A stretch of 22,471 nt of DNA from Utricularia gibba. Taxonomy: Eukaryota > Streptophyta > Magnoliopsida > Lamiales > Lentibulariaceae. A program made the translations under genes and the position numbers. Each line of letters opens with the position of its first letter. Positions within the stretch are counted from its first letter, which is position 1. The notes below the pieces were generated by a model. The model was not told the origin of the DNA. It made no database searches and was given only the letters and a program-made list of their open reading frames with translations. Where the stretch lies: contig NEEC01000266.1 of NCBI GenBank assembly GCA_002189035.1, positions 1 to 22,471 of the forward strand. The letters run 5' to 3'. Below are positions 3,396 to 22,471 of the stretch, one piece after another.

Positions 3396-4629
3396 GGTCC
3401 TACTCGACGAAAATCGTGATGCAGTTATTGAAGTTAGGATTTCATGAGCACCCAAAATGCTTTTTCAAACGCATGCTTTATATTTGATAAGGCACTCTCG
3501 TGGGGCAACGGTATCGAGCAGGAGGTCGAGTCGAGCTCGGCCCATAGTCATTTGTAGCTCGGCAAAAAACTTGATGCATTTATTAACGTTGGTTTTAATA
3601 GGCTGCCTCAATGGTTTTCTCAAGGAAAAGCTTGTCGTTTTGGCGGGTGATGTCGTTGTGAACTTCGTTCTGACCCAAGGTTCGGTCTGTCTCCTTTGCC
3701 AAATCTGGTCCTACTCGACGAAAATCGTGATGCAGTTATTGAAGTTAGGATTTCATGAGCACCCAAAATGCTTTTCAATCGCATGCTTTGTAGTTGAGGA
3801 GGCGCTCTAGTGGGGCACGGTATCGGGCAAAAGGTCGAGTCGGGCTCGCCCAGAGTCATTTTTAGCCTGTCAAAAAAATGATGCATTTATTAACGTTGGG
3901 TTTTAATAGGCTGCCTACATGGTTTCTCAAGGAAAAGCTTGTCGTTTCTGGCGGGTGATGTCTTTTGGAACTTCGTTCTGACCATAGGTTCGGTCTGACT
4001 CCTTTGCCACATCGGGTCCTACTCGACGAAAATCGTGATGCAGTTATTGAAGTTAGGATTTCATGAGCACCCAAAATGGTTTTCTCAACCGCATGCTTTA
4101 TATTTGATAAGGTGCTCTCGTGGGGCAACGGTATCGAGTAGGAGGTCGAGTCGAGCTCGGGCCCATAGTCATTTGTAGCTCGGCAAAAAACTTGATGCAT
4201 TTATTAACGTTGGTTTTAATAGGCTGCCTCAATGGTTTTCTCAAGGAAAAGCTTGTCGTTTTGGGCGGGTGATGTCGTTGTGAACTTCGTTCTGACCCAA
4301 GGTTCGGTCTGTCTCCTTTGCCAAATCTGGTCCTACTCGACGAAAATCGTGATGCAGTTATTGAAGTTAGGATTTCATGAGCACCCAAAATGCTTTTCAA
4401 TCGCATGCTTTGTATTGAGGAGGCGCTCTAGGGGCAACGGTATCGGCAAAAGGTCGAGTCGGCTCGCCCAGAGTCATTTTAGCCGTCAAAAAAATGATGC
4501 ATTTATTAACGTTGGTTTTAATAGGCTGCCTACATGGTTTCTCAAGGAAAAGCTTGTCGTTTCTGGGCGGGTGATGTCTTTGGAACTTCGTTCTGACCAT
4601 AGGTTCGGTCTGACTCCTTTGCCACATCG
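3396..4629 (+). repeat. Monomers 12-15: B-A-B-A double dimer
   Basis: Starts are 3396, 3707, 4015 and 4329, with dimer periods of 619 and 615 bp. Monomer 12 is a B unit whose alpha half begins class-A-like (GCTTTTTCAAACGCATGC) and then switches to the B-type TTTATATTTGATAAGG. Monomer 15 is a 301-bp class A copy with many single-base losses, including one inside CTCTAGTGGGG. Confidence 0.85.
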
Positions 4630-5874
4630 GGTCCTACTCGACGAAAATCGTGATGCAGTTATTGAAGTTAGGATTCATGAGCACCCAAAATGGTTTTCTC
4701 AACCGCATGCTTTATATTTGATAAGGCACTCTCGTGGGGCAACGGTATCGAGTAGGAGGTCGAGTCGAGCTCGGGCCCAGAGTCATTTGTAGCCCGGCAA
4801 AAAAATTGATGCATTTATTAACGTTCGGCTTTATTAGGCTGCCTACATAGTTTCTCAAGGAAAAGCTTGTCGTTTCTGGCGGGTGATGTCTTTTGGAACT
4901 TCGTTCGACCCAAGGTTCTGACTGACTCCTTTGCCACATCGGGTCCTACTCGACGAAAATCGTGATGCAGTTATTGAAGTTAGGATGTCATGAGCACCCA
5001 AAATGGTTTTCTCAACCGCATGCTTTATATTTGAGGAGGCGCTCTCGTGGGGCAACGGTATCGAGTAGGAGGTCGAGTCGAGCTCGGCCATAGTCATTTG
5101 TAGCTCGGCAAAAAAACTTGATGCATTTATTAACGTTGGGTTTTAATAGGGCCTACATTGTTTTCTCAAGGAAAAGCTTGTCGTTTCTGCGCGGGTGATG
5201 TCGTTGGGAACTTCGTTCGACCAAGGTTCGTCTGACTCCTTTGCCACATCGGGTCCTACTCGACGAAAATCGTGATGCAGTTATTGAAGTTAGGATTTCA
5301 TGAGCACCCAAAATGGTTTTCTCAACCGCATGCTTTATATTTGATAAGGTGCTCTCGTGGGGCAACGGTATCGAGTAGGAGGTCGAGTCGAGCTCGGCCC
5401 ATAGTCATTTGTAGCTCGGCAAAAAAATTGATGCATTTATTAACGTTGGTTTTAATAGGCTGCCTACATTGTTTTTCTCAAGGAAAAGCTTGTCGTTTCT
5501 GGCGGGTGATGTCGTTGGAACTTCGTTCTGACCAAGGTTCGGTCTGTCTCCTTTGCCAATCTGGTCCTACTCGACGAAAATCGTGATGCAGTTATTGAAG
5601 TTAGGATTTCATGAGCACCCAAAATGCTTTTTCAATCGCATGCTTTATATTTGATAAGGCACTCTCGTGGGGCAACGGTATCGAGCAGGAGGTCGAGTCG
5701 AGCTCGGGCCCATAGTCATTTGTAGCTCGGCAAAAAAATTGATGCATTTATTAACGTTGGTTTTAATAGGCTGCCTCAATGGTTTTCTCAAGGAAAAGCT
5801 TGTCGTTTTGGCGGGTGATGTCGTTGTGAACTTCGTTCTGACCCAAGGTTCGGTCTGACTCCTTTGCCACATCG
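4630..5874 (+). repeat. Monomers 16-19: C-E-E-chimera, echo of monomers 9-12
   Basis: Starts are 4630, 4942, 5252 and 5563. Monomer 17 carries the TCTGCGCGGG variant and a GTTCGACC tail like monomer 10. Monomer 18 resembles 11. Monomer 19 repeats the A-to-B chimeric alpha half of monomer 12 (GCTTTTTCAATCGCATGC, then TTTATATTTGATAAGGCAC). The group therefore looks like a copy of monomers 9-12 displaced by about 2.16 kb. Confidence 0.65.
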
Positions 5875-6808
5875 GGTCCTACTCGACGAAAATCGTGATG
5901 CAGTTATTGAAGTTAGGATATCATGAGCACCCAAAATGGTTTTCTCAACCGCATGCTTTATATTTGATAAGGCACTCTCGTGGGGCAACGGTATCGAGCA
6001 GGAGGTCGAGTCGAGCTCGGGCCCAGAGTCATTTGTAGCCCGGCAAAAAATTGATGCATTTATTAACGTTCGGCTTTATTAGGCTGCCTACATAGTTTCT
6101 CAAGGAAAAGCTTGTCGTTTCTGGGCGGGTGATGTCTTTTGGAACTTCGTTCTGACCAAGGTTCGGTCTGACTCCTTTGCCACATCGGGTCCTACTCGAC
6201 GAAAATCGTGATGCAGTTATTGAAGTTAGGATTCATGAGCACCCAAAAGGTTTTCTCAACCGCATGCTTTATATTTGATAAGGCACTCTCGTGGGGCAAC
6301 GGTATCGAGCAGGAGGTCGAGTCGAGCTCGGTCCCAGAGTCATTTGTAGCCCGGCAAAAAAATTGATGCATTTATTAACGTTGGTTTATTAGGCTGCCTA
6401 CATAGTTTCTCAAGGAAAAGCTTGTCGTTTCTGGGCGGGTGATGTCTTTGGAACTTCGTTCTGACCATAGGTTCGTCTGACTCCTTTGCCACATCGGGTC
6501 CTACTCGACGAAAATCGTGATGCAGTTATTGAAGTTAGGATATCATGAGCACCCAAAATGTTTTCTCAACCGCATGCTTTATATTTGATAAGGCACTCTC
6601 GTGGGGCAACGGTATCGAGCAGGAGGTCGAGTCGAGCTCGGCCCAGAGTCATTTGTAGCCCGGCAAAAAAATTGATGCATTTATTAACGTTCGGCTTTAT
6701 TAGGCTGCCTACATAGTTTCTCAAGGAAAAGCTTGTCGTTTCTGGGCGGGTGATGTCTTTGGAACTTCGTTCTGACCATAGGTTCGGTCTGACTCCTTTG
6801 CCACATCG
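5875..6808 (+). repeat. Monomers 20-22: homogeneous class C run
   Basis: Starts are 5875, 6188 and 6497. All three are class C with GATAAGGCAC, GAGCAGGAGG, CAGAGTC, AGCCCGGC and ACATAG, ending TCTTTTGGAAC or TCTTTGGAAC with GTTCTGACC. Monomers 20 and 22 share the GGATATCATGAG variant. The run looks like local amplification of one C subtype. Confidence 0.75.
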
Positions 6809-8353
6809 GGTCCTACTCGACGAAAATCGTGATGCAGTTATTGAAGTTAGGATTTCATGAGCACCCAAAATGGTTTTCTCAACCGCATGCTTTATATTTG
6901 ATAAGGTGCTCTCGTGGGGCAACGGTATCGAGTAGGAGGTCGAGTCGAGCTCGGCCCATAGTCATTTGTAGCTCGGCAAAAAACTTGATGCATTTATTAA
7001 CGGTTGGTTTTAATAGGCTGCCTCAATGTTTTCTCAAGGAAAAGCTTGTCGTTTTTGGCGGGTGATGTCGTTGTGAACTTCGTTCTGACCCAGGTTCGGT
7101 CTGACTCCTTTGCCACATCGGGTCCTACTCGACGAAAATCGTGATGCAGTTATTGAAGTTAGGATTCATGAGCACCCAAAATGCTTTTTTCAACGCATGC
7201 TTTTATTTAGGAGCGCTCTAGTGGGGCACGGTATCGAGCAGGTCGAGTCGACTCCCAGAGTCATTTGTAGCCCGACAAAAAATTGATGCATTTATTAACG
7301 TTCGGCGCTATTAGGCTGCCTACATAGTTTCTCAAGGAAAAGCTTGTCGTTTCTGGCGGGTGATGTCGTTGGGAACTTCGTTCGACCCAAGGTTCGACTG
7401 ACTCCTTTGCCACATCGGGTCCTACTCGACGAAAATCGTGATGCAGTTATTGAAGTTAGGATTCATGAGCACCCAAAATGGTTTTCTCAACCGCATGCTT
7501 TATATTTGAGGAGGCGCTCTCGTGGGGCAACGGTATCGAGTAGGAGGTCGAGTCGAGCTCGGGCCCATAGTCATTTGTAGCTCGGCAAAAAACTTGATGC
7601 ATTTATTAACGTTGGTTTTAATAGGCTGCCTCAATGGTTTTCTCAAGGAAAAGCTTGTCGTTTTGGGCGGGTGATGTCGTTGTGAACTTCGTTCTGACCC
7701 AAGGTTCGTTCTGACTCCTTTGCCACATCGGGTCCTACTCGACGAAAATCGTGATGCAGTTATTGAAGTTAGGATTCATGAGCACCCAAAATGGTTTTCT
7801 CAACCGCATGCTTTATATTTGATAAGGTGCTCTCGTGGGGCAACGGTATCGAGTAGGAGGTCGAGTCGAGCTCGGGCCCAGAGTCATTGTAGCCCGGCAA
7901 AAAAATTGATGCATTTATTAACGTTCGGCTTTATTAGGCTGCCTACATAGTTTCTCAAGGAAAAGCTTGTCGTTTCTGCGCGGGTGATGTCGTTGGGAAC
8001 TTCGTTCGGACCCAAGGTTCTGTCTGACTCCTTTGCCACATCGGGTCCTACTCGACGAAAATCGTGATGCAGTTATTGAAGTTAGGATTTCATGAGCACC
8101 CAAAATGCTTTTTTCAATCGCATGCTTTGTAGTTTAGGAGGCGCTCTAGTGGGGCACGGTATCGGGCAAAAGGTCGAGTCGGGCTCACTCCAGAGTCATT
8201 TGTAGCCCGACAAAAATATTGATGCATTTATTAACGTTCGGCTATTAGGCTGCCTACATAGTTTCTCAAGGAAAAGCTTATCGTTTCTGGGCGGGTGATG
8301 TCGTTGGAACTTCGTTCGGACCCAAGGTTCTGACTGACTCCTTTGCCACATCG
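6809..8353 (+). repeat. Monomers 23-27: mixed B, B and C units with A/C chimeras
   Basis: Starts are 6809, 7121, 7418, 7731 and 8044. Monomers 23 and 25 are B and 26 is C. Monomers 24 and 27 have class A alpha halves joined to class C beta halves (AGCCCGAC, GTTCGG, ACATAG). Monomer 24 is the most degraded copy in this zone. Monomer 27 has GCTTATCG instead of GCTTGTCG after the HindIII site, as do monomers 39, 55 and 68. Confidence 0.7.
7121..7417 (+). repeat. Degenerate 297-bp A/C chimeric monomer (monomer 24)
   Basis: This short copy has lost bases at several places in its alpha half: the TTTGTAGTTGAGGAGG region is reduced to TTTTATTTAGGAG, and the GTCGAGCTCGGGCCC region to GTCGACTCCC, removing both the SacI and ApaI palindromes. 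Its beta half is an ordinary class C sequence. It follows a B monomer that ends ACATCGGG, not the AAATCTGG usually seen before class A. Confidence 0.7.
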
Positions 8354-10540
8354 GGTCCTACTCGACGAAAATGTGATGCAGTTATTGAAGTTAGGATGTC
8401 ATGAGCACCCAAAATGGTTTTCTCAACCGCATGCTTTATATTTGAGGAGGCGCTCTCGTGGGGCAACGGTATCGAGTAGGAGGTCGAGTCGAGCTGGGCC
8501 CATAGTCATTTGTAGCTCGGCAAAAAACTTGATGCATTATTAACGTTGGTTTTAATAGCGCCTACATTGTTTTCTCAAGGAAAAGCTTGTCGTTTTTGGG
8601 CGGTGATGTCATTGTGAACTTCGTTCTGACCCAAGGTTCGGTCTGACTCCTTTGCCACATCGGTCCTACTCGACGAAAATCGTGATGCAGTTATTGAAGT
8701 TAGGATGTCAGGAGCACCCAAAATGGTTTTCTCAACCGCATGCTTTATATTTGATAAGGTGCTCTCGTGGGGCAACGGTCGAGCAGGAGGTCGAGTCGAG
8801 CTCGGGCCCAGAGTCATTTGTAGCCCGACAAAAAATTGATGCATTTATTAACGTTCGGCGCTATTAGGCTGCCTACATAGTTTCTCAAGGAAAAGCTTGT
8901 CGTTTCTGGCGGGTGATGTCGTTGGGAACTTCGTTCGGACCCAAGGTTCTGACTGACTCCTTTGCCACATCGGGTCCTACTCGACGAAAATCGTGATGCA
9001 GTTATTGAAGTTAGGATTTCATGAGCACCCAAAATGGTTTTCTCAACCGCATGCTTTATATTTGATAAGGCGCTCTCGTGGGGCAACGGTATCGAGTAGG
9101 AGGTCGAGTCGAGCTCGGGCCCATAGTCATTTGTAGCTCGGCAAAAAACTTGATGCATTTATTAACGTTGGTTTTAATAGGCTGCCTCAATGGTTTTCTC
9201 AAGGAAAAGCTTGTCGTTTCTGGGCGGGTGATGTCTTTTGGAACTTCGTTCTGACCAAGGTTCGGTCTGACTCCTTTGCCACATCGGGTCCTACTCGACG
9301 AAAATCGTGATGCAGTTATTGAAGTTAGGATTCATGAGCACCCAAAATGGTTTTCTCAACCGCATGCTTTATATTTGATAAGGTGCTCTCGTGGGGCAAC
9401 GGTATCGAGTAGGAGGTCGAGTCGAGCTCGGGCCCATAGTCATTTGTAGCTCGGCAAAAAACTTGATGCATTTATTAACGGTTGGTTTTAATAGGCTGCC
9501 TAAATGGTTTTCTCAAGGAAAAGCTTGTCGTTTTTGGGCGGGTGATGTCTTTTGGAACTTCGTTCTGACCATAGGTTCGGTCTGACTCCTTTGCCACATC
9601 GGGTCCTACTCGACGAAAATCGTGATGCAGTTATTGAAGTTAGGATATCATGAGCACCCAAAATGGTTTTCTCAACCGCATGCTTTATATTTGATAAGGC
9701 ACTCTCGTGGGGCAACGGTATCGAGCAGGAGGTCGAGTCGAGCTCGGGCCCAGAGTCATTTGTAGCCCGGCAAAAAAATTGATGCATTTATTAACGTTCG
9801 GTTTATTAGGCTGCCTACATAGTTTTCTCAAGGAAAAGCTTGTCGTTTCTGGGCGGGTGATGTCTTTTGGAACTTCGTTCTGACCAAGGTTCGGTCTGAC
9901 TCCTTTGCCACATCGGGTCCTACTCGACGAAAATCGTGATGCAGTTATTGAAGTTAGGATTTCATGAGCACCCAAAATGGTTTTCTCAACCGCATGCTTT
10001 ATATTTGATAAGGCGCTCTCGTGGGGCAACGGTATCGAGTAGGAGGTCGAGTCGAGCTCGGGCCCATAGTCATTTGTAGCTCGGAAAAAAACTTGATGCA
10101 TTTATTAACGTTGGTTTTAATAGGCTGCCTCAATGGTTTTCTCAAGGAAAAGCTTGTCGTTTTGGGCGGGTGATGTCGTTGTGAACTTCGTTCTGACCCA
10201 AGGTTCGTCTGACTCCTTTGCCACATCGGGTCCTACTCGACGAAAATCGTGATGCAGTTATTGAAGTTAGGATTTCATGAGCACCCAAAATGGTTTTCTC
10301 AACCGCATGCTTTATATTTGATAAGGTGCTCTCGTGGGCAACGGTATCGAGTAGGAGGTCGAGTCGAGCTCGGGCCCAGAGTCATTTGTAGCCCGGCAAA
10401 AAAAATTGATGCATTTATTAACGTTCGGTTTATTAGGCTGCCTACATAGTTTCTCAAGGAAAAGCTTGTCGTTTCTGGCGGGTGATGTCGTTGGGAACTT
10501 CGTTCGACCCAAGGTTCTGTCTGACTCCTTTGCCACATCG
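8354..10540 (+). repeat. Monomers 28-34: E-C-B-B-C-B-C zone
   Basis: Starts are 8354, 8662, 8973, 9287, 9602, 9916 and 10229. Monomer 28 is E-like with a B-type end, 29 is C, 30 and 31 are B with TCTTTTGGAAC ends, 32 is C with GGATATCATG, 33 is B, and 34 is C. No class A unit occurs here. Monomer 28 is a rare copy with a base lost from the conserved core (ACGAAAATGTG). Monomer 31 has TAAATGG, a variant otherwise seen only in monomers 70 and 72. Confidence 0.7.
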
Positions 10541-12399
10541 GGTCCTACTCGACGAAAATCGTGATGCAGTTATTGAAGTTAGGATTTCATGAGCACCCAA
10601 AATGCTTTTTTCAACGCATGCTTTGTATTTAGGAGGCGCTCTAGTGGGGCACGGTATCGGGCAAAAGGTCGAGTCGGCTCGCTCCAGAGTCATTTGTAGC
10701 CCGACAAAAAATTGATGCATTTATTAACGTTCGGCTATTAGGCTGCCTACATAGTTTCTCAAGGAAAAGCTTGTCGTTTCTGGCGGGTGATGTCGTTGGG
10801 AACTTCGTTCGGACCCAAGGTTCTGACTGACTCCTTTGCCACATCGGGTCCTACTCGACGAAAATCGTGATGCAGTTATTGAAGTTAGGATTTCATGAGC
10901 ACCCAAAATGGTTTTCTCAACCGCATGCTTTATATTTGATAAGGTGCTCTCGTGGGGCAACGGTATCGAGTAGGAGGTCGAGTCGAGCTCGGGCCCATAG
11001 TCATTTGTAGCTCGGCAAAAAACTTGATGCATTTATTAACGGTTGGTTTTAATAGGCTGCCTCAATGGTTTTCTCAAGGAAAAGCTTGTCGTTTTTGGGC
11101 GGGTGATGTCGTTGTGAACTTCGTTCTGACCAAGGTTCGGTCTGTCTCCTTTGCCAAATCTGGTCCTACTCGACGAAAATCGTGATGCAGTTATTGAAGT
11201 TAGGATTTCATGAGCACCCAAAATGCTTTTTCAATCGCATGCTTTGTAGTTGAGGAGGCGCTCTAGTGGGGCACGGTATCGGGCAAAAGGTCGAGTCGGG
11301 CTCGCTCCAGAGTCATTTGTAGCCTGTCAAAAAAATGATGCATTTATTAACGTTGGGTTTTAATAGGCTGCCTACATGGTTTCTCAAGGAAAAGCTTGTC
11401 GTTTCTGGGCGGGTGATGTCTTTGGAACTTCGTTCTGACCATAGGTTCGGTCTGACTCCTTTGCCACATCGGGTCCTACTCGACGAAAATCGTGATGCAG
11501 TTATTGAAGTTAGGATATCATGAGCACCCAAAATGGTTTTCTCAACCGCATGCTTTATATTTGATAAGGCACTCTCGTGGGCAACGGTATCGAGCAGGAG
11601 GTCGAGTCGAGCTCGGCCCAGAGTCATTTGTAGCTCGGCAAAAAACTTGATGCATTTTTTAACGTTGGGTTTTAATAGGCTGCCTACATGGTTTCTCAAG
11701 GAAAAGCTTGTCGTTTTTGGGGGTGATGTCGTTGTAACTTCGTTCGACCCAAGGTTCGGTCTGTCTCCTTTGCCAAATCTGGTCCTACTCGACGAAAATC
11801 GTGATGCAGTTATTGAAGTTAGGATTTCATGAGCACCCAAAATGGCTTTTGTCAATCCGCATGCTTTGTATTGAGGAGCGCTCTAGTGGGGCACGGTATC
11901 GGGCAAAAGGTCGAGTCGGGCTCGCTCCCAGAGTCATTTGTAGCCCGACAAAAAAATTGATGCATTTATTAACGTTCGGCTATAGGCTGCCTACATAGTT
12001 TCTCAAGGAAAAGCTTATCGTTTCTGGGCGGGTGATGTCGTTGGAACTTCGTTCGGACCCAAGGTTCTGTCTGACTCCTTTGCCACATCGGGTCCTACTC
12101 GACGAAAATCGTGATGCAGTTATTGAAGTTAGGATGTCATGAGCACCCAAAATGGTTTTCTCAACCGCATGCTTTATATTTGAGGAGGCGCTCTCGTGGG
12201 GCAACGGTATCGAGCAGGAGGTCGAGTCGAGCTCGGGCCCAGAGTCATTTGTAGCCCGACAAAAAAATTGATGCATTTATTAACGTTCGGTTTAGGCTGC
12301 CTACATAGTTTCTCAAGGAAAAGCTTGTCGTTTCTGGCGGTGATGTCGTTGGGAACTTCGTTCGGACCCAAGGTTCTGTCTGACTCCTTTGCCACATCG
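10541..12399 (+). repeat. Monomers 35-40: A/C chimeras and B-A pair preceding the HOR
   Basis: Starts are 10541, 10847, 11162, 11472, 11781 and 12091. Monomers 35 and 39 are A/C chimeras, 36-37 form a B-A dimer, 38 is a mosaic of C alpha and class-A-like beta with an AAATCTGG end, and 40 is class C of the right-hand subtype (GTTCGGACCC). This segment is transitional into the regular 13-mer zone. Confidence 0.7.
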
Positions 12400-13520
12400 G
12401 GTCCTACTCGACGAAAATCGTGATGCAGTTATTGAAGTTAGGATTCATGAGCACCCAAAATGGTTTTCTCAACCGCATGCTTTATATTTGAGGAGGCGCT
12501 CTCGTGGGGCAACGGTATCGAGCAGGAGGTCGAGTCGAGCTCGGGCCCATAGTCATTTGTAGCTCGGCAAAAAACTTGATGCATTTATTAACGTTGGTTT
12601 TAATAGGCTGCCTCAATGGTTTTCTCAAGGAAAAGCTTGTCGTTTTTGGGCGGGTGATGTCGTTGTGAACTTCGTTCTGACCCAAGGTTCGGTCTGTCTC
12701 CTTTGCCACATCTGGTCCTACTCGACGAAAATCGTGATGCAGTTATTGAAGTTAGGATTTCATGAGCACCCAAAATGCTTTTTCAATCGCATGCTTTAGT
12801 TGAGGAGGCGCTCTAGTGGGGCACGGTATCGGGCAAAAGGTCGAGTCGGGCTCGCTCCCAGAGTCATTTGTAGCCCGACAAAAATTGATGCATTTATTAA
12901 CGTTCGGCGCTATTAGGCTGCCTACATAGTTTCTCAAGGAAAAGCTTGTCGTTTCTGGCGGTGATGTCGTTGGAACTTCGTTCGGACCCAAGGTTCTGAC
13001 TGACTCCTTTGCCACATCGGGTCCTACTCGACGAAAATCGTGATGCAGTTATTGAAGTTAGGATGTCATGAGCACCCAAAATGGTTTTCTCAACCGCATG
13101 CTTTATATTTGATAAGGCGCTCTCGTGGGGCAACGGTATCGAGTAGGAGGTCGAGTCGAGCTCGGGCCCATAGTCATTTGTAGCTCGGCAAAAAACTTGA
13201 TGCATTAATTAACGTTGGGTTTTAATAGAACGCCTACATTGTTTTCTCAAGGAAAAGCTTGTCGTTTCTGGCGGGTGATGTCGTTGGAACTTCGTTCGGA
13301 CCCAAGGTTCTGTCTGACTCCTTTGCCACATCGGGTCCTACTCGACGAAAATCGTGATGCAGTTATTGAAGTTAGGATTTCATGAGCACCCAAAATGGTT
13401 TTCTCAACCGCATGCTTTATATTTGATAAGGTGCTCTCGTGGGGCAACGGTATCGAGTAGGAGGTCGAGTCGAGCTCGGGCCCATAGTCATTTGTAGCTC
13501 GGCAAAAAACTTGATGCATT

Positions 13521-13540
13521 TATTAACGTTGGTTTTAATA
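13521..13540. repeat. Short inverted repeat TATTAA-N8-TTAATA in beta half (example copy)
   Basis: TATTAACGTTGGTTTTAATA has 6-bp arms around an 8-base spacer. It is present in B and A class monomers and lost in class C, where GTTCGG and a shortened T/A stretch replace the right arm. It may be a coincidence of an AT-rich segment. Confidence 0.45.
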
Positions 13541-15207
13541 GGCTGCCTCAATGGTTTTCTCAAGGAAAAGCTTGTCGTTTTTGGGCGGGTGATGTCGTTG
13601 TGAACTTCGTTCTGACCCAAGGTTCGGTCTGTCTCCTTTGCCAAATCTGGTCCTACTCGACGAAAATCGTGATGCAGTTATTGAAGTTAGGATTTCATGA
13701 GCACCCAAAATGCTTTTTTCAATCGCATGCTTTGTAGTTGAGGAGGCGCTCTAGTGGGGCACGGTATCGGGCAAAAGGTCGAGTCGGGCTCGCTCCCAGA
13801 GTCATTTGTAGCCTGTCAAAAAAAGTGATGCATTTATTAACGTTGGGTTTTAATAGGCTACCTACATGGTTTCTCAAGGAAAAGCTTGTCGTTTCTGGCG
13901 GGTGATGTCGTTGGGAACTTCGTTCGGACCCAAGGTTCTGTCTGACTCCTTTGCCACATCGGGTCCTACTCGACGAAAATCGTGATGCAGTTATTGAAGT
14001 TAGGATTTCATGAGCACCCAAAATGGTTTTCTCAACCGCATGCTTTATATTTGATAAGGCTCTCGTGGGGCAACGGTATCGAGTAGGAGGTCGAGTCGAG
14101 CTCGGGCCCATAGTCATTTGTAGCTCGGCAAAAAACTTGATGCATTTATTAACGTTGGTTTTAATAGGCTGCCTCAATGGTTTTCTCAAGGAAAAGCTTG
14201 TCGTTTTTGGGCGGTGATGTCGTTGTGAACTTCGTTCTGACCCAAGGTTCGGTCTGTCTCCTTTGCCAAATCTGGTCCTACTCGACGAAAATCGTGATGC
14301 AGTTATTGAAGTTAGGATTTCATGAGCACCCAAAATGCTTTTTTCAATCGCATGCTTTGTAGTTGAGGAGGCGCTCTAGTGGGGCACGGTATCGGCAAAA
14401 GGTCGAGTCGGCTCGCTCCCAGAGTCATTTGTAGCCGTCAAAAAATGATGCATTTATTAACGTTGGTTTTAATAGGCTGCCTACATGGTTTCTCAAGGAA
14501 AAGCTTGTCGTTTCTGGGCGGGTGATGTCTTTTGGAACTTCGTTCTGACCAAGGTTCGGTCTGACTCCTTTGCCACATCGGGTCCTACTCGACGAAAATC
14601 GTGATGCAGTTATTGAAGTTAGGATGTCATGAGCACCCAAAATGGTTTTCTCAACCGCATGCTTTATATTTGAGGAGGCGCTCTCGTGGGGCAACGGTAT
14701 CGAGTAGGAGGTCGAGTCGAGCTCGGGCCCATAGTCATTTGTAGCTCGGCAAAAAACTTGATGCATTAATTAACGTTGGGTTTTAATAGAACGCCTACAT
14801 TGTTTTCTCAAGGAAAAGCTTGTCGTTTTTGGGCGGGTGATTTCGTTGTGAACTTCGTTCTGACCCAAGTTCGGTCTGACTCCTTTGCCACATCGGGTCC
14901 TACTCGACGAAAATCGTGATGCAGTTATTAAGTTAGGATGTCATGAGCACCCAAAATGGTTTTCTCAACCGCATGCTTTATATTTGATAAGGTGCTCTCG
15001 TGGGGCAACGGTATCGAGTAGGAGGTCGAGTCGAGCTCGGGCCCATAGTCATTTGTAGCTCGGAAAAAATTGATGCATTTATTAACGTTTGGTTTTAATA
15101 GGCTGCCTCAATGGTTTTCTCAAGGAAAAGCTTGTCGTTTTTGGGCGGGTGATGTCGTTGTGAACTTCGTTCTGACCAAGGTTCGGTCTGACTCCTTTGC
15201 CACATCG

Positions 15208-15504
15208 GGTCCTACTCGACGAAAATCGTGATGCAGTTATTGAAGTTAGGATATCATGAGCACCCAAAATGGTTTTCTCAACCGCATGCTTTATATTTGA
15301 TAAGGCACTCTCGTGGGGCAACGGTATCGAGCAGGAGGTCGAGTCGAGCTCGGGCCCAGAGTCATTTTAGCCCGACAAAAAATTGATGCATTTATTAACG
15401 TTCGGCGCTATTAGCTGCCTACATAGTTTCTCAAGGAAAAGCTTGTTTTGAAGTTAGGAACTTCGTTCGGACCCAAGGTTCTGTCTGACTCCTTTGCCAC
15501 ATCG
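15208..15504 (+). repeat. Monomer 50: class C copy with deletion after the HindIII site
   Basis: This 297-bp copy lacks most of the stretch that normally lies between AAGCTTG and GGAACTTCG. In its place is TTTTGAAGTTAGGAACTTCG, whose TTGAAGTTAGGA part equals a segment from the start of every monomer. It is the positional partner of monomer 63 in the 13-mer HOR. Confidence 0.8.
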
Positions 15505-17384
15505 GGTCCTACTCGACGAAAATCGTGATGCAGTTATTGAAGTTAGGATGTCATGAGCACCCAAAATGGTTTTCTCAACCGCATGCTTTATATTTGAGGA
15601 GGCGCTCTCGTGGGGCAACGGTATCGAGCAGGAGGTCGAGTCGAGCTCGGGCCCCGAGTCATTTGTAGCCCGCAAAAAATTGATGCATTTATTAACGTTC
15701 GGCTTTATTAGGCTGCCTACATAGTTTCTCAAGGAAAAGCTTGTCGTTTCTGGGCGGGTGATGTCGTTGGGAACTTCGTTCGGACCCAAGGTTCGTCTGA
15801 CTCCTTTGCCACATCGGGTCCTACTCGACGAAAATCGTGATGCAGTTATTGAAGTTAGGATGTCATGAGCACCCAAAATGCTTTTCTCAACCGCATGCTT
15901 TATATTTGATAGGCGCTCTCGTGGGCAACGGTATCGAGCAGGAGGTCGAGTCGAGCTCGGGCCCAGAGTCATTTGTAGCCCGACAAAAATATTGATGCAT
16001 TTATTAACGTTCGGCTTAGGCTGCCTACATGTTTCTCAAGGAAAAGCTTGTCGTTTCTGGCGGGTGATGTCGTTGGGAACTTCGTTCGGACCCAAGGTTC
16101 TGTCTGACTCCTTTGCCACATCGGGTCCTACTCGACGAAAATCGTGATGCAGTTATTGAAGTTAGGATGTCATGAGCACCCAAAATGGTTTTCTCAACCG
16201 CATGCTTTATATTTGAGGAGGCGCTCTCGTGGGCAACGGTATCGAGCAGGAGGTCGAGTCGAGCTCGGGCCCAGAGTCATTTGTAGCCCGACAAAAATAT
16301 TGATGCATTTATTAACGTTCGGCGCTATTAGGCTGCCTACATAGTTTCTCAAGGAAAAGCTTGTCGTTTCTGGCGGTGATGTCGTTGGGAACTTCGTTCG
16401 GACCCAAGGTTCTGTCTGACTCCTTTGCCACATCGGGTCCTACTCGACGAAAATCGTGATGCAGTTATTGAAGTTAGGATGTCATGAGCACCCAAAATGG
16501 TTTTCTCAACCGCATGCTTTATATTTGAGGAGGCGCTCTCGTGGGGCAACGGTATCGAGCAGGAGGTCGAGTCGAGCTCGGGCCCATAGTCATTTGTAGC
16601 TCGGCAAAAAACTTGATGCATTTATTAACGGTTGGTTTTAATAGGCTGCCTCAATGGTTTTCTCAAGGAAAAGCTTGTCGTTTTTGGGGGGTGATGTCGT
16701 TGTGAACTTCGTTCTGACCCAAGGTTCGGTCTGTCTCCTTTGCCAAATCTGGTCCTACTCGACGAAAATCGTGATGCAGTTATTGAAGTTAGGATTTCAT
16801 GAGCACCCAAAATGCTTTTGTCAATCGCATGCTTTGTATTGAGGAGGCGCTCTAGTGGGGCACGGTATCGGCAAAAGGTCGAGTCGGGCTCGCTCCCAGA
16901 GTCATTTGTAGCCCGACAAAAAATTGATGCATTTATTAACGTTCGGCGCTATTAGGCTGCCTACATAGTTTCTCAAGGAAAAGCTTATCGTTTCTGGCCG
17001 GTGATGTCGTTGGGAACTTCGTTCGGACCCAAGGTTCTGACTGACTCCTTTGCCACATCGGGTCCTACTCGACGAAAATCGTGATGCAGTTATTGAAGTT
17101 AGGATGTCATGAGCACCCAAAATGGTTTTCTCAACCGCATGCTTTATATTTGATAAGGTGCTCTCGTGGGGCAACGGTATCGAGTAGGAGGTCGAGTCGA
17201 GCTCGGGCCCATAGTCATTTGTAGCTCGGCAAAAAACTTGATGCATTAATTAACGTTGGGTTTTAATAGAACGCTACATTGTTTTCTCAAGGAAAAGCTT
17301 GTCGTTTCTGGCGGGTGATGTCGTTGGGAACTTCGTTCGGACCAAGGTTCTGTCTGACTCCTTTGCCACATCGGGTCCTACTCG

Positions 17385-17395
17385 ACGAAAATCGT
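17385..17395. other. Invariant core dyad ACGAAAATCGT (example copy)
   Basis: ACGA-AAA-TCGT is a small perfect dyad inside the ~40-bp core CTACTCGACG...GTTAGGA that begins each monomer. By eye it is intact in nearly all 72 copies; exceptions I saw are monomer 28 (a base lost) and, just outside the dyad, monomer 72 (CTCAACG). No function can be assigned from sequence alone. Confidence 0.6.
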
Positions 17396-17552
17396 GATGC
17401 AGTTATTGAAGTTAGGATTTCATGAGCACCCAAAATGGTTTTCTCAACCGCATGCTTTATATTTGATAAGGTGCTCTCGTGGGGCAACGGTATCGAGTAG
17501 GAGGTCGAGTCGAGCTCGGGCCCATAGTCATTTGTAGCTCGGCAAAAAACTT
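17396..17552 (+). repeat. Half-monomer alpha (157 bp) of monomer 57
   Basis: This is the first of two homologous halves, from one GATGCA anchor to the next. Landmarks in order are GATGCAGTTATTGAAGTT, AATGGTTTTCTCAA at 17434, TGCTCTCGTGGGGCAAC, GGTCGAGTCGAGCTC, and an A-run preceded by GCTCGGC. Each has a counterpart at the matching place in the next half. Gap-tolerant alignment by eye matches well over half of the positions. Confidence 0.75.
17511..17523. other. Overlapping palindromes CGAGCTCG and GGGCCC (example copy)
   Basis: CGAGCTCGGGCCC joins an 8-bp palindrome containing a SacI site to an ApaI palindrome. Most B, C and E monomers keep the first, and many keep the second; class A monomers lose both because of the GTCGGGCTCG change. 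The stretch is CpG-rich (GTCGAGTCGAGCTCG), which would make it a target for cytosine methylation in a eukaryotic genome. Confidence 0.5.
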
Positions 17553-17711
17553 GATGCATTTATTAACGGTTGGTTTTAATAGGCTGCCTCAATGGTTTTC
17601 TCAAGGAAAAGCTTGTCGTTTTTGGGCGGGTGATGTCGTTGTGAACTTCGTTCTGACCCAAGGTTCGGTCTGTCTCCTTTGCCAAATCTGGTCCTACTCG
17701 ACGAAAATCGT
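17553..17711 (+). repeat. Half-monomer beta (159 bp) of monomer 57
   Basis: This is the second homologous half. It begins GATGCATTTATTAACGGTT, has the exact block AATGGTTTTCTCAA at 17591 (157 bp after the alpha copy), TGATGTCGTTGTGAACT opposite alpha's TGCTCTCGTGGGGCAAC, GGTTCGGTCTGTCTC opposite alpha's GGTCGAGTCGAGCTC, and ACTCGACGAAAATCGT opposite alpha's GCTCGGC plus A-run. It ends where the next monomer's GATGCA begins. The near-equal spacing (157 and 159 bp) supports an ancestral dimerisation. Confidence 0.75.
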
Positions 17712-18318
17712 GATGCAGTTATTGAAGTTAGGATTTCATGAGCACCCAAAATGCTTTTTTCAATCGCATGCTTTGTATTGAGGAGGCGCTCTCGTGGGGC
17801 ACGGTATCGGGCAAAAGGTCGAGTCGAGCTCGCTCCCAGAGTCATTTTTAGCCTGTCAAAAAAATTGATGCATTTATTAACGTTGGGTTTTAATAGGCTG
17901 CCTACATGGTTTCTCAAGGAAAAGCTTGTCGTTTCTGCGCGGGTGATGTCGTTGGGAACTTCGTTCGGACCCAAGGTTCTGTCTGACTCCTTTGCCACAT
18001 CGGGTCCTACTCGACGAAAATCGTGATGCAGTTATTGAAGTTAGGATTTCATGAGCACCCAAAATGGTTTTCTCAACCGCATGCTTTATATTTGATAAGG
18101 TGCTCTCGTGGGGCAACGGTATCGAGTAGGAGGTCGAGTCGAGCTCGGGCCCATAGTCATTTGTAGCTCGGCAAAAAACTTGATGCATTTATTAACGGTT
18201 GGTTTTAATAGGCTGCCTCAATGGTTTTCTCAAGGAAAAGCTTGTCGTTTTTGGGCGGGTGATGTCGTTGTGAACTTCGTTCTGACCCAAGGTTCGGTCT
18301 GTCTCCTTTGCCAAATCT

Positions 18319-18626
18319 GGTCCTACTCGACGAAAATCGTGATGCAGTTATTGAAGTTAGGATTTCATGAGCACCCAAAATGCTTTTTTCAATCGCATGC
18401 TTTGTAGTTGAGGAGGCGCTCTAGTGGGGCACGGTATCGGGCAAAAGGTCGAGTCGGGCTCGCTCCCAGAGTCATTTTTAGCCCAAAAAAATGATGCATT
18501 TATTAACGTTGGTTTTAATAGGCTGCCTACATGGTTCTCAAGGAAAAGCTTGTCGTTTCTGGGCGGGTGATGTCTTTTGGAACTTCGTTCTGACCATAGG
18601 TTCGGTCTGACTCCTTTGCCACATCG
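18319..18626 (+). repeat. Representative class A monomer (monomer 60)
   Basis: Class A differs from the others in the alpha half. It has GCTTTTTTCAATCGCATGC instead of GGTTTTCTCAACCGCATGC, then TTTGTAGTTGAGGAGGCGC, CTCTAGTGGGGCACGG with one A missing, and GGGCAAAAGGTCGAGTCGGG instead of GAGTAGGAGG. The beta half usually has AGCCTGTC before the A-run, ACATGG, and TCTTTTGGAAC with CCATAGG. The preceding monomer usually ends AAATCTGG. Class A alpha halves occur in monomers 1, 3, 5, 13, 15, 24, 27, 35, 37, 39, 42, 45, 47, 55, 58 and 60. Confidence 0.85.
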
Positions 18627-18940
18627 GGTCCTACTCGACGAAAATCGTGATGCAGTTATTGAAGTTAGGATGTCATGAGCACCCAAAATGGTTTTCTCAA
18701 CCGCATGCTTTATATTTGAGGAGGCGCTCTCGTGGGGCAACGGTATCGAGTAGGAGGTCGAGTCGAGCTCGGGCCCATAGTCATTTGTAGCTCGGCAAAA
18801 AACTTGATGCATTAATTAACGTTGGGTTTTAATAGCGCCTACATTGTTTTCTCAAGGAAAAGCTTGTCGTTTTTGGGCGGGTGATGTCGTTGTGAACTTC
18901 GTTCTGACCCAAGGTTCGGTCTGACTCCTTTGCCACATCG
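18627..18940 (+). repeat. Representative class E monomer (monomer 61)
   Basis: Class E combines a CCATAGTC and CTTGATGCA segment like class B with a distinct junction. TTAATAGG is altered to TTAATAGCGCC or TTAATAGAACGCC, and the following block is ACATTG instead of CTCAATGG. In the right half class E also carries ATTAATTAAC in place of ATTTATTAAC. Members with ATTAATTAAC are monomers 43, 48, 56, 61 and 69. Confidence 0.75.
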
Positions 18941-19252
18941 GGTCCTACTCGACGAAAATCGTGATGCAGTTATTGAAGTTAGGATGTCATGAGCACCCAA
19001 AATGGTTTTCTCAACCGCATGCTTTATATTTGATAAGGTGCTCTCGTGGGGCAACGGTATCGAGTAGGAGGTCGAGTCGAGCTCGGGCCCATAGTCATTT
19101 GTAGCTCGGAAAAAATTGATGCATTTATTAACGTTTGGTTTTAATAGGCTGCCTCAATGGTTTCTCAAGGAAAAGCTTGTCGTTTTTGGGCGGGTGATGT
19201 CGTTGTGAACTTCGTTCTGACCAAGGTTCGGTCTGACTCCTTTGCCACATCG

Positions 19253-19544
19253 GGTCCTACTCGACGAAAATCGTGATGCAGTTATTGAAGTTAGGATTCA
19301 TGAGCACCCAAAATGGTTTTCTCAACCGCATGCTTTATATTTGATAAGGCACTCTCGTGGGGCAACGGTATCGAGCAGGAGGTCGAGTCGAGCTCGGCCC
19401 AGAGTCATTTTTAGCCCGACAAAAATTGATGCATTTATTAACGTTCGGCTATTAGGCTGCCTACATGTTTCTCAAGGAAAAGCTTGTTTTTGGTTTGGAA
19501 CTTCGTTCGGACCCAAGGTTCTGTCTGACTCCTTTGCCACATTG
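19253..19544 (+). repeat. Monomer 63: class C copy with deletion at the same place
   Basis: At 292 bp this is the shortest monomer in the window. It is shortened at the same place as monomer 50, but its junction reads GCTTGTTTTTGGTTTGGAAC, which fits loss of a segment around GCGGGTGATGTC and has no inserted TTGAAGTTAGGA. The conserved core also carries ACATTGGG in place of ACATCGGG at its 3' boundary. Confidence 0.8.
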
Positions 19545-20160
19545 GGTCCTACTCGACGAAAATCGTGATGCAGTTATTGAAGTTAGGATGTCATGAGCAC
19601 CCAAAATGGTTTTCTCAACCGCATGCTTTATATTTGAGGAGGCGCTCTCGTGGGGCAACGTATCGAGCAGGAGGTCGAGTCGAGCTCGGGCCCGAGTCAT
19701 TTGTAGCCGACAAAAAATTGATGCATTTATTAACGTTGGTTTATTAGGCTGCCTACATAGTTTCTCAAGGAAAAGCTTGTCGTTTCTGGGCGGGTGATGT
19801 CGTTGGGAACTTCGTTCGGACCCAAGGTTCTGTCTGACTCCTTTGCCACATCGGGTCCTACTCGACGAAAATCGTGATGCAGTTATTGAAGTTAGGATGT
19901 CATGAGCACCCAAAATGGTTTTCTCAACCGCATGCTTTATATTTGATAGGCGCTCTCGTGGGCAACGGTATCGAGCAGGAGGTCGAGTCGAGCTCGGGCC
20001 CAGAGTCATTTGTAGCCGACAAAAAATTGATGCATTTATTAACGTTCGGTATTAGGCTGCCTACATAGTTTCTCAAGGAAAAGCTTGTCGTTTCTGGCGG
20101 GTGATGTCGTTGGGAACTTCGTTCGGACCCAAGGTTCTGTCTGACTCCTTTGCCACATCG

Positions 20161-20473
20161 GGTCCTACTCGACGAAAATCGTGATGCAGTTATTGAAGTT
20201 AGGATGTCATGAGCACCCAAAATGGTTTTCTCAACCGCATGCTTTATATTTGAGGAGGCGCTCTCGTGGGGCAACGGTATCGAGCAGGAGGTCGAGTCGA
20301 GCTCGGGCCCAGAGTCATTTGTAGCCCGACAAAAAATTGATGCATTTATTAACGTTCGGCTTATTAGGCTGCCTACATAGTTTTCTCAAGGAAAAGCTTG
20401 TCGTTTCTGGGCGGGTGATGTCGTTGGGAACTTCGTTCGGACCCAAGGTTCTTCTGACTCCTTTGCCACATCG
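20161..20473 (+). repeat. Representative class C monomer (monomer 66)
   Basis: Class C is marked by GAGCAGGAGG, CCCAGAGTC instead of CCCATAGTC, AGCCCGAC or AGCCCGGC before the A-run, GTTCGG followed by a short CTATTAGG or TTATTAGG instead of GTTGGTTTTAATAGG, and ACATAG. In the right half of the array its end reads GTTCGGACCCAAGGTTC. In the 5.8-6.8 kb block it reads GTTCTGACC, which marks an older or locally converted subtype. Confidence 0.8.
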
Positions 20474-22471
20474 GGTCCTACTCGACGAAAATCGTGATGC
20501 AGTTATTGAAGTTAGGATGTCATGAGCACCCAAAATGGTTTTCTCAACCGCATGCTTTATATTTGATAAGGCGCTCTCGTGGGGCAACGGTATCGAGTAG
20601 GAGGTCGAGTCGAGCTCGGGCCCATAGTCATTTGTAGCTCGGCAAAAAACTTGATGCATTTATTAACGTTGGTTTTAATAGGCTGCCTCAATGGTTTTCT
20701 CAAGGAAAAGCTTGTCGTTTTTGGGCGGGTGATGTCGTTGTGAACTTCGTTCTGACCCAAGGTTCGGTCTGTCTCCTTTGCCAAATCTGGTCCTACTCGA
20801 CGAAAATCGTGATGCAGTTATTGAAGTTAGGATTTCATGAGCACCCAAAATGTTTTCTCAACCGCATGCTTTATATTTGAAGGCGCTCTCGTGGGGCAAC
20901 GGTATCGAGCAGGAGGTCGAGTCGAGCTCGGGCCCAGAGTCATTTGTAGCCCGACAAAAATATTGATGCATTTATTAACGTTCGGCGCTATTAGGCTGCC
21001 TACATAGTTTCTCAAGGAAAAGCTTATCGTTTCTGGGCGGGTGATGTCGTTGGGAACTTCGTTCGGACCCAAGGTTCTGTCTGACTCCTTTGCCACATCG
21101 GGTCCTACTCGACGAAAATCGTGATGCAGTTATTGAAGTTAGGATGTCATGAGCACCCAAAATGGTTTTCTCAACCGCATGCTTTATATTTGAGGAGGCG
21201 CTCTCGTGGGGCAACGGTATCGAGGGAGGTCGAGTCGAGCTCGGGCCCATAGTCATTTGTAGCTCGGCAAAAAACTTGATGCATTAATTAACGTTGGGTT
21301 TTAATAGCGCCTACATTGTTTTCTCAGGAAAAGCTTGTCGTTTTTGGGCGGGTGATTTCGTTGTGAACTTCGTTCTGACCAACAATTCGGTCTGACTCCT
21401 TTGCCACATCGGGTCCTACTCGACGAAAATCGTGATGCAGTTATTGAAGTTAGGATGTCATGAGCACCCAAAATGGTTTTCTCAACCGCATGCTTTATAT
21501 TTGATAAGGTGCTCTCGTGGGCAACGGTATCGAGTAGGAGGTCGAGTCGAGCTCGGGCCCATAGTCATTTGTAGCTCGCAAAAAACTTGATGCATTTATT
21601 AACGGTTGGTTTTAATAGGCCGCCTAAATGGTTTTCTCAAGAAAAAGCTTGTCGTTTTTGGGCGGGTGATGTCGTTGTGAACTTCGTTCTGACCATAGGT
21701 TCGTCTGACTCCTTTGCCACATCGGGTCCTACTCGACGAAAATCGTGATGCAGTTATTGAAGTTAGGATGTCATGAGCACCCAAAGTGGTTTCTCAACCG
21801 CATGCTTTATATTTGAGGAGGCGCTCTCGTGGGGCAACGGTATCGAGCAGGAGGTCGAGTCGAGCTCGGGCCCAGAGTCATTTGTAGCCCGACAAAAATA
21901 TTGATGCATTTATTAACGTTCGGGCTATTAGGCTGCCTACATAGTTTCTCAAAGAAAAGCTTGTCGTTTCTGCGCGGGTGATGTCGTTGGGAACTTCGTT
22001 CGGACCCAAGGTTCTGTCTGACTCCTTTGCCACATCGGGTCCTACTCAACGAAAATCGTGATGCAGTTATTGAAGTTAGGATGTCATGAGCACCCAAAAT
22101 GGTTTTCTCAACCGCATGCTTTATATTTGAGGAGGCGCTCTCGTGGGGCAACGGTATCGAGCAGGAGGTCGAGTCGAGCTCGGCCCATAGTCATTTGTAG
22201 CTCGGCAAAAAATTTGATGCATTTATTAACATTTGTAGCTCGGCAAAAAATTTGATGCATTTATTAACGGTTGGTTTTAATAGGCGCCTAAATGGTTTTC
22301 TCATGGAAAAGCTTGTTGTTTTTGGCGGGTGATGTCGTTGTGAACTTCGTTGTGACCAAGGTTCGGTCTGTCACCTTTGCCAAATCTGGTCCTACTCGAC
22401 GAAAATCGTGATGCAGTTATTGAAGTTAGGATTTCATGAGAACCAAAAGGGTTTTCTCAACCGCGTGCTTT
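20474..22471 (+). repeat. 13-monomer higher-order repeat, partial copy 3, eroded
   Basis: Monomers 67-73 start at 20474, 20789, 21101, 21412, 21725, 22038 and 22388 (partial). Classes are B, C, E, B, C, B against the expected B, A/C, E, B, A, B, so both A-type alpha halves are replaced by C-type. Monomer 69 keeps ATTAATTAAC at 21283, 4038 bp after its copy 2 partner. Private substitutions accumulate rightward, including changes in the conserved core (CTACTCAACG at about 22045) and next to the HindIII site (near 21640, 21950 and 22300). Confidence 0.7.
22193..22268 (+). repeat. Perfect 38-bp tandem duplication inside monomer 72
   Basis: Positions 22193-22230 and 22231-22268 are identical, running from ATTTGTAGCTCGG through the A-run and GATGCATTTATTAAC. 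This accounts for monomer 72 being 350 bp instead of about 312. No other monomer shows it. Confidence 0.93.

What the first reader, a model, noticed from the sequence alone, without database searches (positions are those of the whole stretch)
17396..17711. The ~311-bp monomer is an ancient dimer of two ~157-bp halves
The two GATGCA anchors lie 157 and 159 bp apart. Corresponding blocks line up at a constant offset: GATGCA(G/T)TTATT, the exact 14-mer AATGGTTTTCTCAA (157 bp apart), TGCTCTCGTGGGGCAAC against TGATGTCGTTGTGAACT, GGTCGAGTCGAGCTC against GGTTCGGTCTGTCTC, and GCTCGGC plus A-run against ACTCGACGAAAATC. The matches are collinear over the full half, which chance does not give. A ~157-bp ancestral unit is close to nucleosome-core length, a common size for centromeric satellites. 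The current period would then come from dimerisation followed by divergence of the halves.
Basis: seen in the sequence. Interest (0 to 1): 0.75.

Follow-up and report, generated by a model that had tools for sequence, protein, structure and literature searches.

The report
Plant satellite built from doubled 157-mers
The 312-bp tandem repeat filling this stretch of a small plant genome is an old doubling of a 157-bp unit whose two halves drifted apart, an ordinary kind of event, but its abundance is of interest because the inferred plant (a bladderwort) has been described as lacking satellite DNA at its putative centromeres.

Summary
The finding holds. The window is one satellite array of ~312-bp units, each half A (157 bp) plus half B (157-159 bp). 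The halves alternate throughout, except at one 38-bp duplication. In the window consensus A and B are 61% identical (score 99; shuffles 33.6 +/- 8.7; 0 of 10,000 as high). The likeness is uneven: 78% over 50 columns, 53% over the other 102, where the window alone is weak (82 of 5,000 shuffles as high).

Related arrays settle it. Three other sequence types also carry A and B. In a tree of 44 rows all A lie on one side of a branch and all B on the other (100/100). In array C106 the weak part matches in register at 46%; 89 rotations average 27%, maximum 32%. Some arrays doubled again (~630 bp).

The assembly fits Utricularia gibba (inferred), whose putative centromeres a 2021 paper describes as lacking satellites. 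Here A/B arrays cap three of 18 large contigs examined, one a telomere-started arm; exact words had no listed hit on the four chromosome-sized contigs. A centromeric or pericentromeric role is likely but untested. New member of a known kind.

The parts
1..22471 (+). Head-to-tail satellite array filling the window; 72 dimers between GATGCAG anchors, median 312 bp, mean pairwise identity 0.918
   Evidence: TRF 1-22230, period 313, 71.6 copies; anchors run on to the window end; dimer comparison
17396..17552 (+). Half A (157 bp) of the dimer named in the finding
   Evidence: Starts GATGCAG
17553..17711 (+). Half B (159 bp) of the same dimer
   Evidence: Starts GATGCAT; aligns to A with 93 identities, 62 mismatches, 6 gap positions
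17434..17447 (+). Shared 14-mer AATGGTTTTCTCAA in A
17591..17604 (+). The same 14-mer in B, 157 bp on
17690..17733 (+). 44-bp block across the B-to-A junction, nearly invariant in this sequence type, once per dimer
   Evidence: All 44 columns below 2% substitutions and 2% gaps in 188 dimers; longest such run in 20,000 column permutations was 34
22192..22268 (+). 38-bp tandem duplication, the one place in the window where the anchors do not alternate

Best explanation
An ancestral ~157-bp satellite monomer was duplicated in tandem (or two diverged monomers were amplified as a pair). The pair then became the unit that unequal exchange or replication-based amplification multiplied. Shown: two homologous halves of near-equal length; alternation in the window and, with a few irregular spots, in other arrays; separate descent of A and B across four sequence types; a second doubling (A1-B1-A2-B2, ~630 bp) in some arrays. 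Inferred: at 54-70% identity A and B rarely recombine out of register, so arrays grow and shrink in whole dimers, which keeps the order. Inferred and not tested (my estimate 0.6): the arrays belong to centromeric or pericentromeric heterochromatin of some chromosomes, where each half would fit about one nucleosome.
For: Halves align over full length, 0 of 10,000 shuffles as good, and the anchor register is the best rotation. Ungapped self-match of the dimer peaks at lag 157, half the period: 0.381 window type, 0.446 C8, 0.516 C106, mean over lags ~0.25. Tail alone: C106 45.7% against rotations averaging 27.3%, maximum 31.7%, 0 of 89, and 0 of 5,000 shuffles; global tail scores as high in 1 of 2,000 shuffles for C8, 1 of 2,000 for C106, 0 of 2,000 for C402, and 1 of 5,000 for the four-type consensus. 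A (22 rows) and B (22 rows) each need one change on the tree, 100/100. A-to-A junction word: 0 exact hits in the assembly; B-to-A 25-mer: 3,986 exact copies. Second doubling, same-half neighbours at lag 1 against lag 2: C106 A 0.72/0.94, C20 A 0.86/0.93, C7 A 0.84/0.93. Location: C213 starts with telomere repeat, has no satellite hit in 9 of 9 samples from 3.20 to 3.48 Mb, and from 3,486,175 has it in all 10 later samples and the four longer stretches read, up to its end at 3,704,653.
Against: Outside the first ~50 columns the window type's halves are only 53% identical over aligned columns, and banded tail tests are reached by 8 to 44 of 1,500 shuffles. Without a one-base shift its tail matches ungapped at only 0.238, no better than controls; the best of three shifts gives 0.419. 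C20 is also weak in the global tail test (29 of 2,000). One of six array consensuses (C300) fails the ungapped tail test: 16 of 90 rotations and 883 of 5,000 shuffles as good. C300 and C106 show a few irregular spots in the A-B order, not resolved. No monomeric 157-bp array was found. Published primer letters of the 161-bp centromeric repeat of Genlisea match no better than shuffles. Signature words gave no listed hit on C1-C4, so a role at every centromere is not indicated.
Confidence: 0.87

Rival explanations
1. Only a ~50-bp module (GATGCA to TTTCTCAA) is shared: it was copied or gene-converted into a second place of an unrelated 312-bp monomer, or is a recurrent protein-binding box, and the other ~105 bp of each half are unrelated.
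For: Identity drops from 78% to 53% past the module; tail tests in the window type alone are marginal (82 of 5,000; 21 and 44 of 1,500).
Against: The two tails have nearly equal length (105 and 107 bp). Tail likeness is significant in C106 and C8 and C402, and rises in the four-type consensus, as descent predicts.
Confidence: 0.08
2. The half-period likeness is chance or a composition effect.
For: Both halves share A/T-runs and TCG-rich stretches, which lift shuffled scores.
Against: 0 of 10,000 dinucleotide shuffles; the anchor register is the best rotation, and reverse-complement rotations reach only 59; other arrays show the same lag.
Confidence: 0.01
3. The arrays are not centromeric but subtelomeric or knob-like heterochromatin blocks, and centromeres of this plant are satellite-free, as a 2021 paper infers from the assembled chromosomes.
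For: No listed signature hit on C1-C4; PMC8333044 (passage) speaks of absence of satellite repeats in the putative centromeric regions; contig C460 has A/B arrays at both ends in opposite orientation around ~0.7 Mb without satellite hits in 18 of 18 samples.
Against: C213 carries the array at the end opposite its telomere; C460 shows an array-bounded interior. The four chromosome-sized contigs may have assembled through because they lack such arrays (inference).
Confidence: 0.3

Closest known systems
343-bp alpha satellite of New World monkeys (PMC4053949, passages)
   Same: A doubled version of a ~171-bp monomer became the main repeat; its two halves are only weakly alike.
   Different: Unrelated organism, sequences not compared here; for the monkeys the 171-bp form survives in relatives, here none was found.
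AB-dimer higher-order repeats of plant satellites, e.g. Sorghum (PMC4053949, passages)
   Same: A and B monomers alternate and cluster separately in a tree.
   Different: The Sorghum A and B are shown as differing by SNPs; here A and B consensuses are 54-70% identical, so the dimer behaves as the monomer.
Human alpha-satellite A/B dimers (PMC8997354, passages)
   Same: Alternating monomers 50-70% identical to each other within highly similar multimers; longer repeats built from dimers.
   Different: No CENP-B box was sought or claimed; the 44-bp invariant block once per dimer is only an analogy.
Gn7c161, 161-bp repeat of Genlisea nigrocaulis (PMC4542322, passages); same family Lentibulariaceae if the species inference is right
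   Same: Near-equal unit length; reported there as (peri)centromere-associated by FISH.
   Different: Described as a 161-bp motif, not a dimer; the only letters available (two primers) match the A/B satellites no better than shuffles. Its full sequence was not seen (Tran 2015 not held).

Membership tests
Dimeric (AB) satellite derived from a shorter monomer | Unit splits into two homologous halves over their full length | tested here: met
   weak in the window type alone outside the first ~50 bp; C300 fails the ungapped tail test
Dimeric (AB) satellite derived from a shorter monomer | Halves alternate | tested here: met
   Window: alternation with one exception, the 38-bp duplication. A-A junction word 0 hits. 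B-B word 10 hits, 5 of the 10 read and all 5 are A followed by B. Irregular spots in C300 and C106 and a mixed order in C402
Dimeric (AB) satellite derived from a shorter monomer | A and B form separate groups across arrays | tested here: met
   22 A and 22 B rows (7 consensuses and 15 single units each), one change each, 100/100; root not known
Dimeric (AB) satellite derived from a shorter monomer | Monomeric ancestor or relative exists | tested here: inconclusive
   None in the pieces of G000 that were read; Genlisea primers at chance level
Higher-order repeat satellite | Copies several units apart are more alike than neighbours | tested here: met
   C7, C20 and C106 at two dimers; C402 within a ~2.3-kb mixed repeat. 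Not C8 at lag 2; window and C213 interior only slightly
Centromeric satellite | Carries CENH3 nucleosomes | not testable with these tools
   No ChIP data
Centromeric satellite | Megabase-scale abundance in long arrays | tested here: met
   22,144 half anchors with up to 3 mismatches, reversed control 0; C213 array about 218 kb to contig end, read in part
Centromeric satellite | Present on every chromosome | tested here: inconclusive
   No listed hit on C1-C4 (exact words) or among the zero-mismatch hits listed. The lists show about 100 places and appear to run in contig order, so exact hits there would have come first; arrays with diverged words would be missed

The most novel reading that the evidence does not exclude
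This plant (Utricularia gibba by inference) has two kinds of chromosomes: some with large satellite-based centromeres built on the doubled 157-mer or on a separate ~340-bp satellite, and some without satellites. The published view that its putative centromeres lack satellites would then be an assembly bias, because only satellite-free chromosomes assembled end to end.
Probability: 0.4. Interest if true: 0.65.

Novelty: new member of a known kind. Interest (0 to 1): 0.45.

Why it matters
It gives a nested series of doublings (157, ~314, ~630 bp) preserved in several sequence types within one 100-Mb genome, useful for testing how satellite units grow. It also makes a stated gap testable: whether the centromeres of a model minimal plant genome are really satellite-free, or were missed because satellite-bearing arms end in unassembled arrays.

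Tried and rejected
Quarter units of ~78 bp: no global self-likeness in A (z -1.0) or B (z 0.1), although B's local score was reached by only 6 of 2,000 shuffles; not pursued. True B-B junctions: 10 word hits; the 5 that were read are ordinary A-to-B; the other 5 were not read. Kinship of the A/B satellite with the 343/337-bp satellite: none found (132 and 175 of 300 shuffles as good), while 343 and 337 are related to each other (0 of 300). Kinship with Genlisea Gn7c161 through its two primers: chance level (180 and 160 of 400 shuffles as good); the 16 other primers of the same table behave alike. Constraint reading of the shared 5' part: A is less variable there (0.016 against 0.062) but B is not (0.044 against 0.037), so shared constraint is not shown. 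The other half's base as the commonest minor allele at differing sites: 14 of 30, not pursued.

Limits of the statistics: the tail boundary was chosen after seeing the alignment; array types share ancestry, so their tests are not independent; C402 was not in the ungapped test. Rows outside set length limits were dropped before a consensus or count: under 100 bp (1 of 145), 140-165 bp kept, 125-185 bp, 290-330 bp for the 188 dimers, 130-170 bp; one search took 5 random units (140-165 bp) per half from three arrays. The large contigs whose ends were read came from a histone search, from C1-C4 and C213, and from an arbitrary sample, not from a full list.

Full report
WHAT THE WINDOW IS. The window is contig C427 (22,471 bp) of a 100.09-Mb, 516-contig assembly. 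It is one head-to-tail satellite array (TRF 1-22230, period 313; anchors run on to the end). GATGCA occurs 146 times, 73 times followed by G and 73 times by T. The two alternate at spacings of 139-159 bp with one exception, a 38-bp duplication. The 72 dimers have median length 312 bp and mean pairwise identity 0.918.

CHECK OF THE FINDING. The window consensus of A (72 copies) and B (72 copies) aligns with 94 identities in 153 columns. Score 99 against shuffles 33.6 +/- 8.7, 0 of 10,000 as high; without the first 12 bases 78 against 27.9, 0 of 5,000. Among all rotations of B the anchor register is best; reverse-complement rotations reach 59.

WHERE THE LIKENESS LIES. With 203 A and 199 B units (window plus C213 and C34 pieces), identity is 78% over 50 columns up to TTTCTCAA and 53% over the other 102. 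The tail alone is marginal in this type: 82 of 5,000 shuffles as good; 21 and 44 of 1,500 in banded alignments, 8 of 1,500 in each band when transitions cost less; unrelated flank DNA reaches the score in 1 of 400 (A tail) and 7 of 400 (B tail) overlapping windows. Taken alone, the window could not exclude a shared 50-bp module.

OTHER ARRAYS DECIDE. Pieces of other contigs hold three further sequence types, here called C8-type (C7, C8, C20, C300), C106-type and C402-type. Consensus identity to the window type is 0.68-0.71 for A of the C8-type, 0.82 for C106 A and 0.76 for C402 A; A against B within an array is 0.54-0.70. The A-B order holds in C7, C8 and C20; C300 and C106 have a few irregular spots, and C402 a mixed order. 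Ungapped self-match of the dimer peaks at lag 157: 0.381 (window), 0.446 (C8) and 0.516 (C106), mean ~0.25. In the tail alone, best of three shifts, C106 gives 0.457 (no shift needed) against rotations with mean 0.273 and maximum 0.317 (0 of 89), and 0 of 5,000 shuffles. Window, C7, C8 and C20 also exceed every rotation, the window only after a one-base shift (0.419; unshifted 0.238). C300 does not (16 of 90 rotations, 883 of 5,000 shuffles). Global tail tests: 1 of 2,000 shuffles as good for C8, 1 of 2,000 for C106, 0 of 2,000 for C402, 29 of 2,000 for C20. A consensus over four types lifts the whole score to 115 (z 9.4) and the tail to z 4.1 (1 of 5,000). A tree of 44 rows puts the 22 A and the 22 B on two sides of one branch, 100/100. 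The doubling therefore predates the sequence types.

FURTHER DOUBLING. Same-half neighbours at lag 1 against lag 2: C106 A 0.72/0.94, C7 A 0.84/0.93, C20 A 0.86/0.93; C8 shows none (0.883/0.882). C402 A gives 0.76/0.99, but there the repeat is a ~2.3-kb mixture. TRF periods of 616-623 bp appear at the starts of C25, C60, C250 and C460. The window shows little (0.913/0.928), as do two stretches inside C213. The edge of the C213 array repeats with ~631 bp by inspection.

ALTERNATION IN THE ASSEMBLY. The A-to-A junction word has no exact hit. A B-to-B word has 10 hits; 5 of the 10 were read and all 5 are A followed by B. The B-to-A 25-mer has 3,986 exact copies. Mechanism (inference): halves this unlike rarely recombine out of register, so exchange and amplification act on whole dimers.

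AN INVARIANT BLOCK. In 188 window-type dimers (window and C213), the 44 bp across the B-to-A junction vary below 2% at every column; the longest such run in 20,000 permutations was 34. Columns are not independent, and the block is not kept as a whole in the other types, so function is a suggestion only.

AMOUNT AND PLACE. The half anchor with up to 3 mismatches occurs 22,144 times, reversed control 0; at ~156 bp each that would be ~3.5 Mb (my arithmetic). The C8-type B word occurs 4,519 times exactly. Of 20 arbitrarily chosen contig starts, 8 lie in A/B satellite, 3 show a 342-347-bp tandem period, 2 one of 523-534 bp, 5 read N, and 2 show none. I looked at ends of 18 contigs above 0.7 Mb (the start of one, C98, reads N). 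Three end in A/B arrays (C213, C402, C460), a fourth (C414) begins with a 66-bp piece of half B only, and three have a 337-347-bp tandem repeat at an end (C244, C451, C480). C213, C244 and C451 begin, and C480 ends, with telomere repeat, so four contigs have telomere at one end and satellite at the other; their insides were mostly not read. On C213 the array begins at 3,486,175, about 300 bp from a Ty1/copia-type retrotransposon (Pfam RVT_2 and others; gag of another element further out), and reaches the contig end at 3,704,653. C460 has window-type array at its start (positive at 1-1,500, 42 and 84 kb), no hit in 18 of 18 samples from 126 to 840 kb, and C106-type array in the opposite orientation at its end. 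Signature words have no listed hit on C1-C4 (exact words; zero-mismatch class); the lists are cut at about 100 places and appear to run in contig order. C3 and C4 have telomere repeat at both ends, C1 and C2 only at the start.

SPECIES. Inferred, not shown: four chromosome-sized contigs (8.50, 6.19, 5.35, 3.85 Mb), TTTAGGG telomeres and a 6.82-Mb contig fit the PacBio assembly of Utricularia gibba, for which PMC8333044 names four putatively entire chromosomes and a 6.8-Mb Unitig_8 (passages). PMC5793159 gives 581 contigs and a genome size of 82 Mb for the long-read assembly (passages), which differ from the 516 contigs and 100.09 Mb here. The genome paper itself (Lan 2017) is not held.

RELATION TO PRINT. 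[quoted passage not shown] The arrays here do not contradict that for C1-C4 but show that the same assembly (if the inference is right) holds abundant satellites elsewhere. Searches listed no paper whose title or shown start of abstract describes a U. gibba satellite; the library lacks most subscription papers. The closest parallels are dimer-derived satellites (PMC4053949; PMC8997354; passages only). In Genlisea, of the same family, a 161-bp repeat is centromere-associated (PMC4542322, passages); its primers do not match beyond chance.

VERDICT. Dimer origin well supported; centromeric or pericentromeric role likely but inferred; a new member of a known kind.

Noticed in passing
L099 (C244 end), L100 (C451 end): A second satellite with 343/337-bp period, the two versions related to each other but not detectably to the A/B satellite; a shared 25-mer occurs 2,262 times in the assembly and has no listed hit on C1-C4. 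The 343-bp version has a weak self-match at 171 bp.
   Followed up: partly
L117, L120, L124 (starts of C200, C330, C480): Tandem periods of 342-347 bp by TRF; kinship with the 343/337-bp satellite was not tested.
   Followed up: no
L095, L096 (end of C402): Complex ~2.3-kb repeat mixing A/B units with AT-rich ~62-bp tandem repeats.
   Followed up: partly
L113, L122 (starts of C80, C400): Tandem repeats with 523-534-bp period, no A/B likeness.
   Followed up: no
L030:3371-7876: Ty1/copia-type retrotransposon reading frames (590 and 910 codons) about 300 bp outside the array edge on C213.
   Followed up: partly
G000 contigs C1, C2, C40, C45, C70, C280, C350, C360, C409, C505: Contig lengths are multiples of 2,500 (for example 8,500,000 and 6,192,500), and C1 and C2 lack telomere repeat in their last 700 bp; suggests trimming during assembly or polishing.
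   Followed up: no
C460 (880,676 bp): Satellite arrays of two different types, in opposite orientations, at the two ends of one contig.
   Followed up: partly
C402:1152439-1152773: Histone-fold match split over two exon-like pieces; could be a variant H3, not examined.
   Followed up: no
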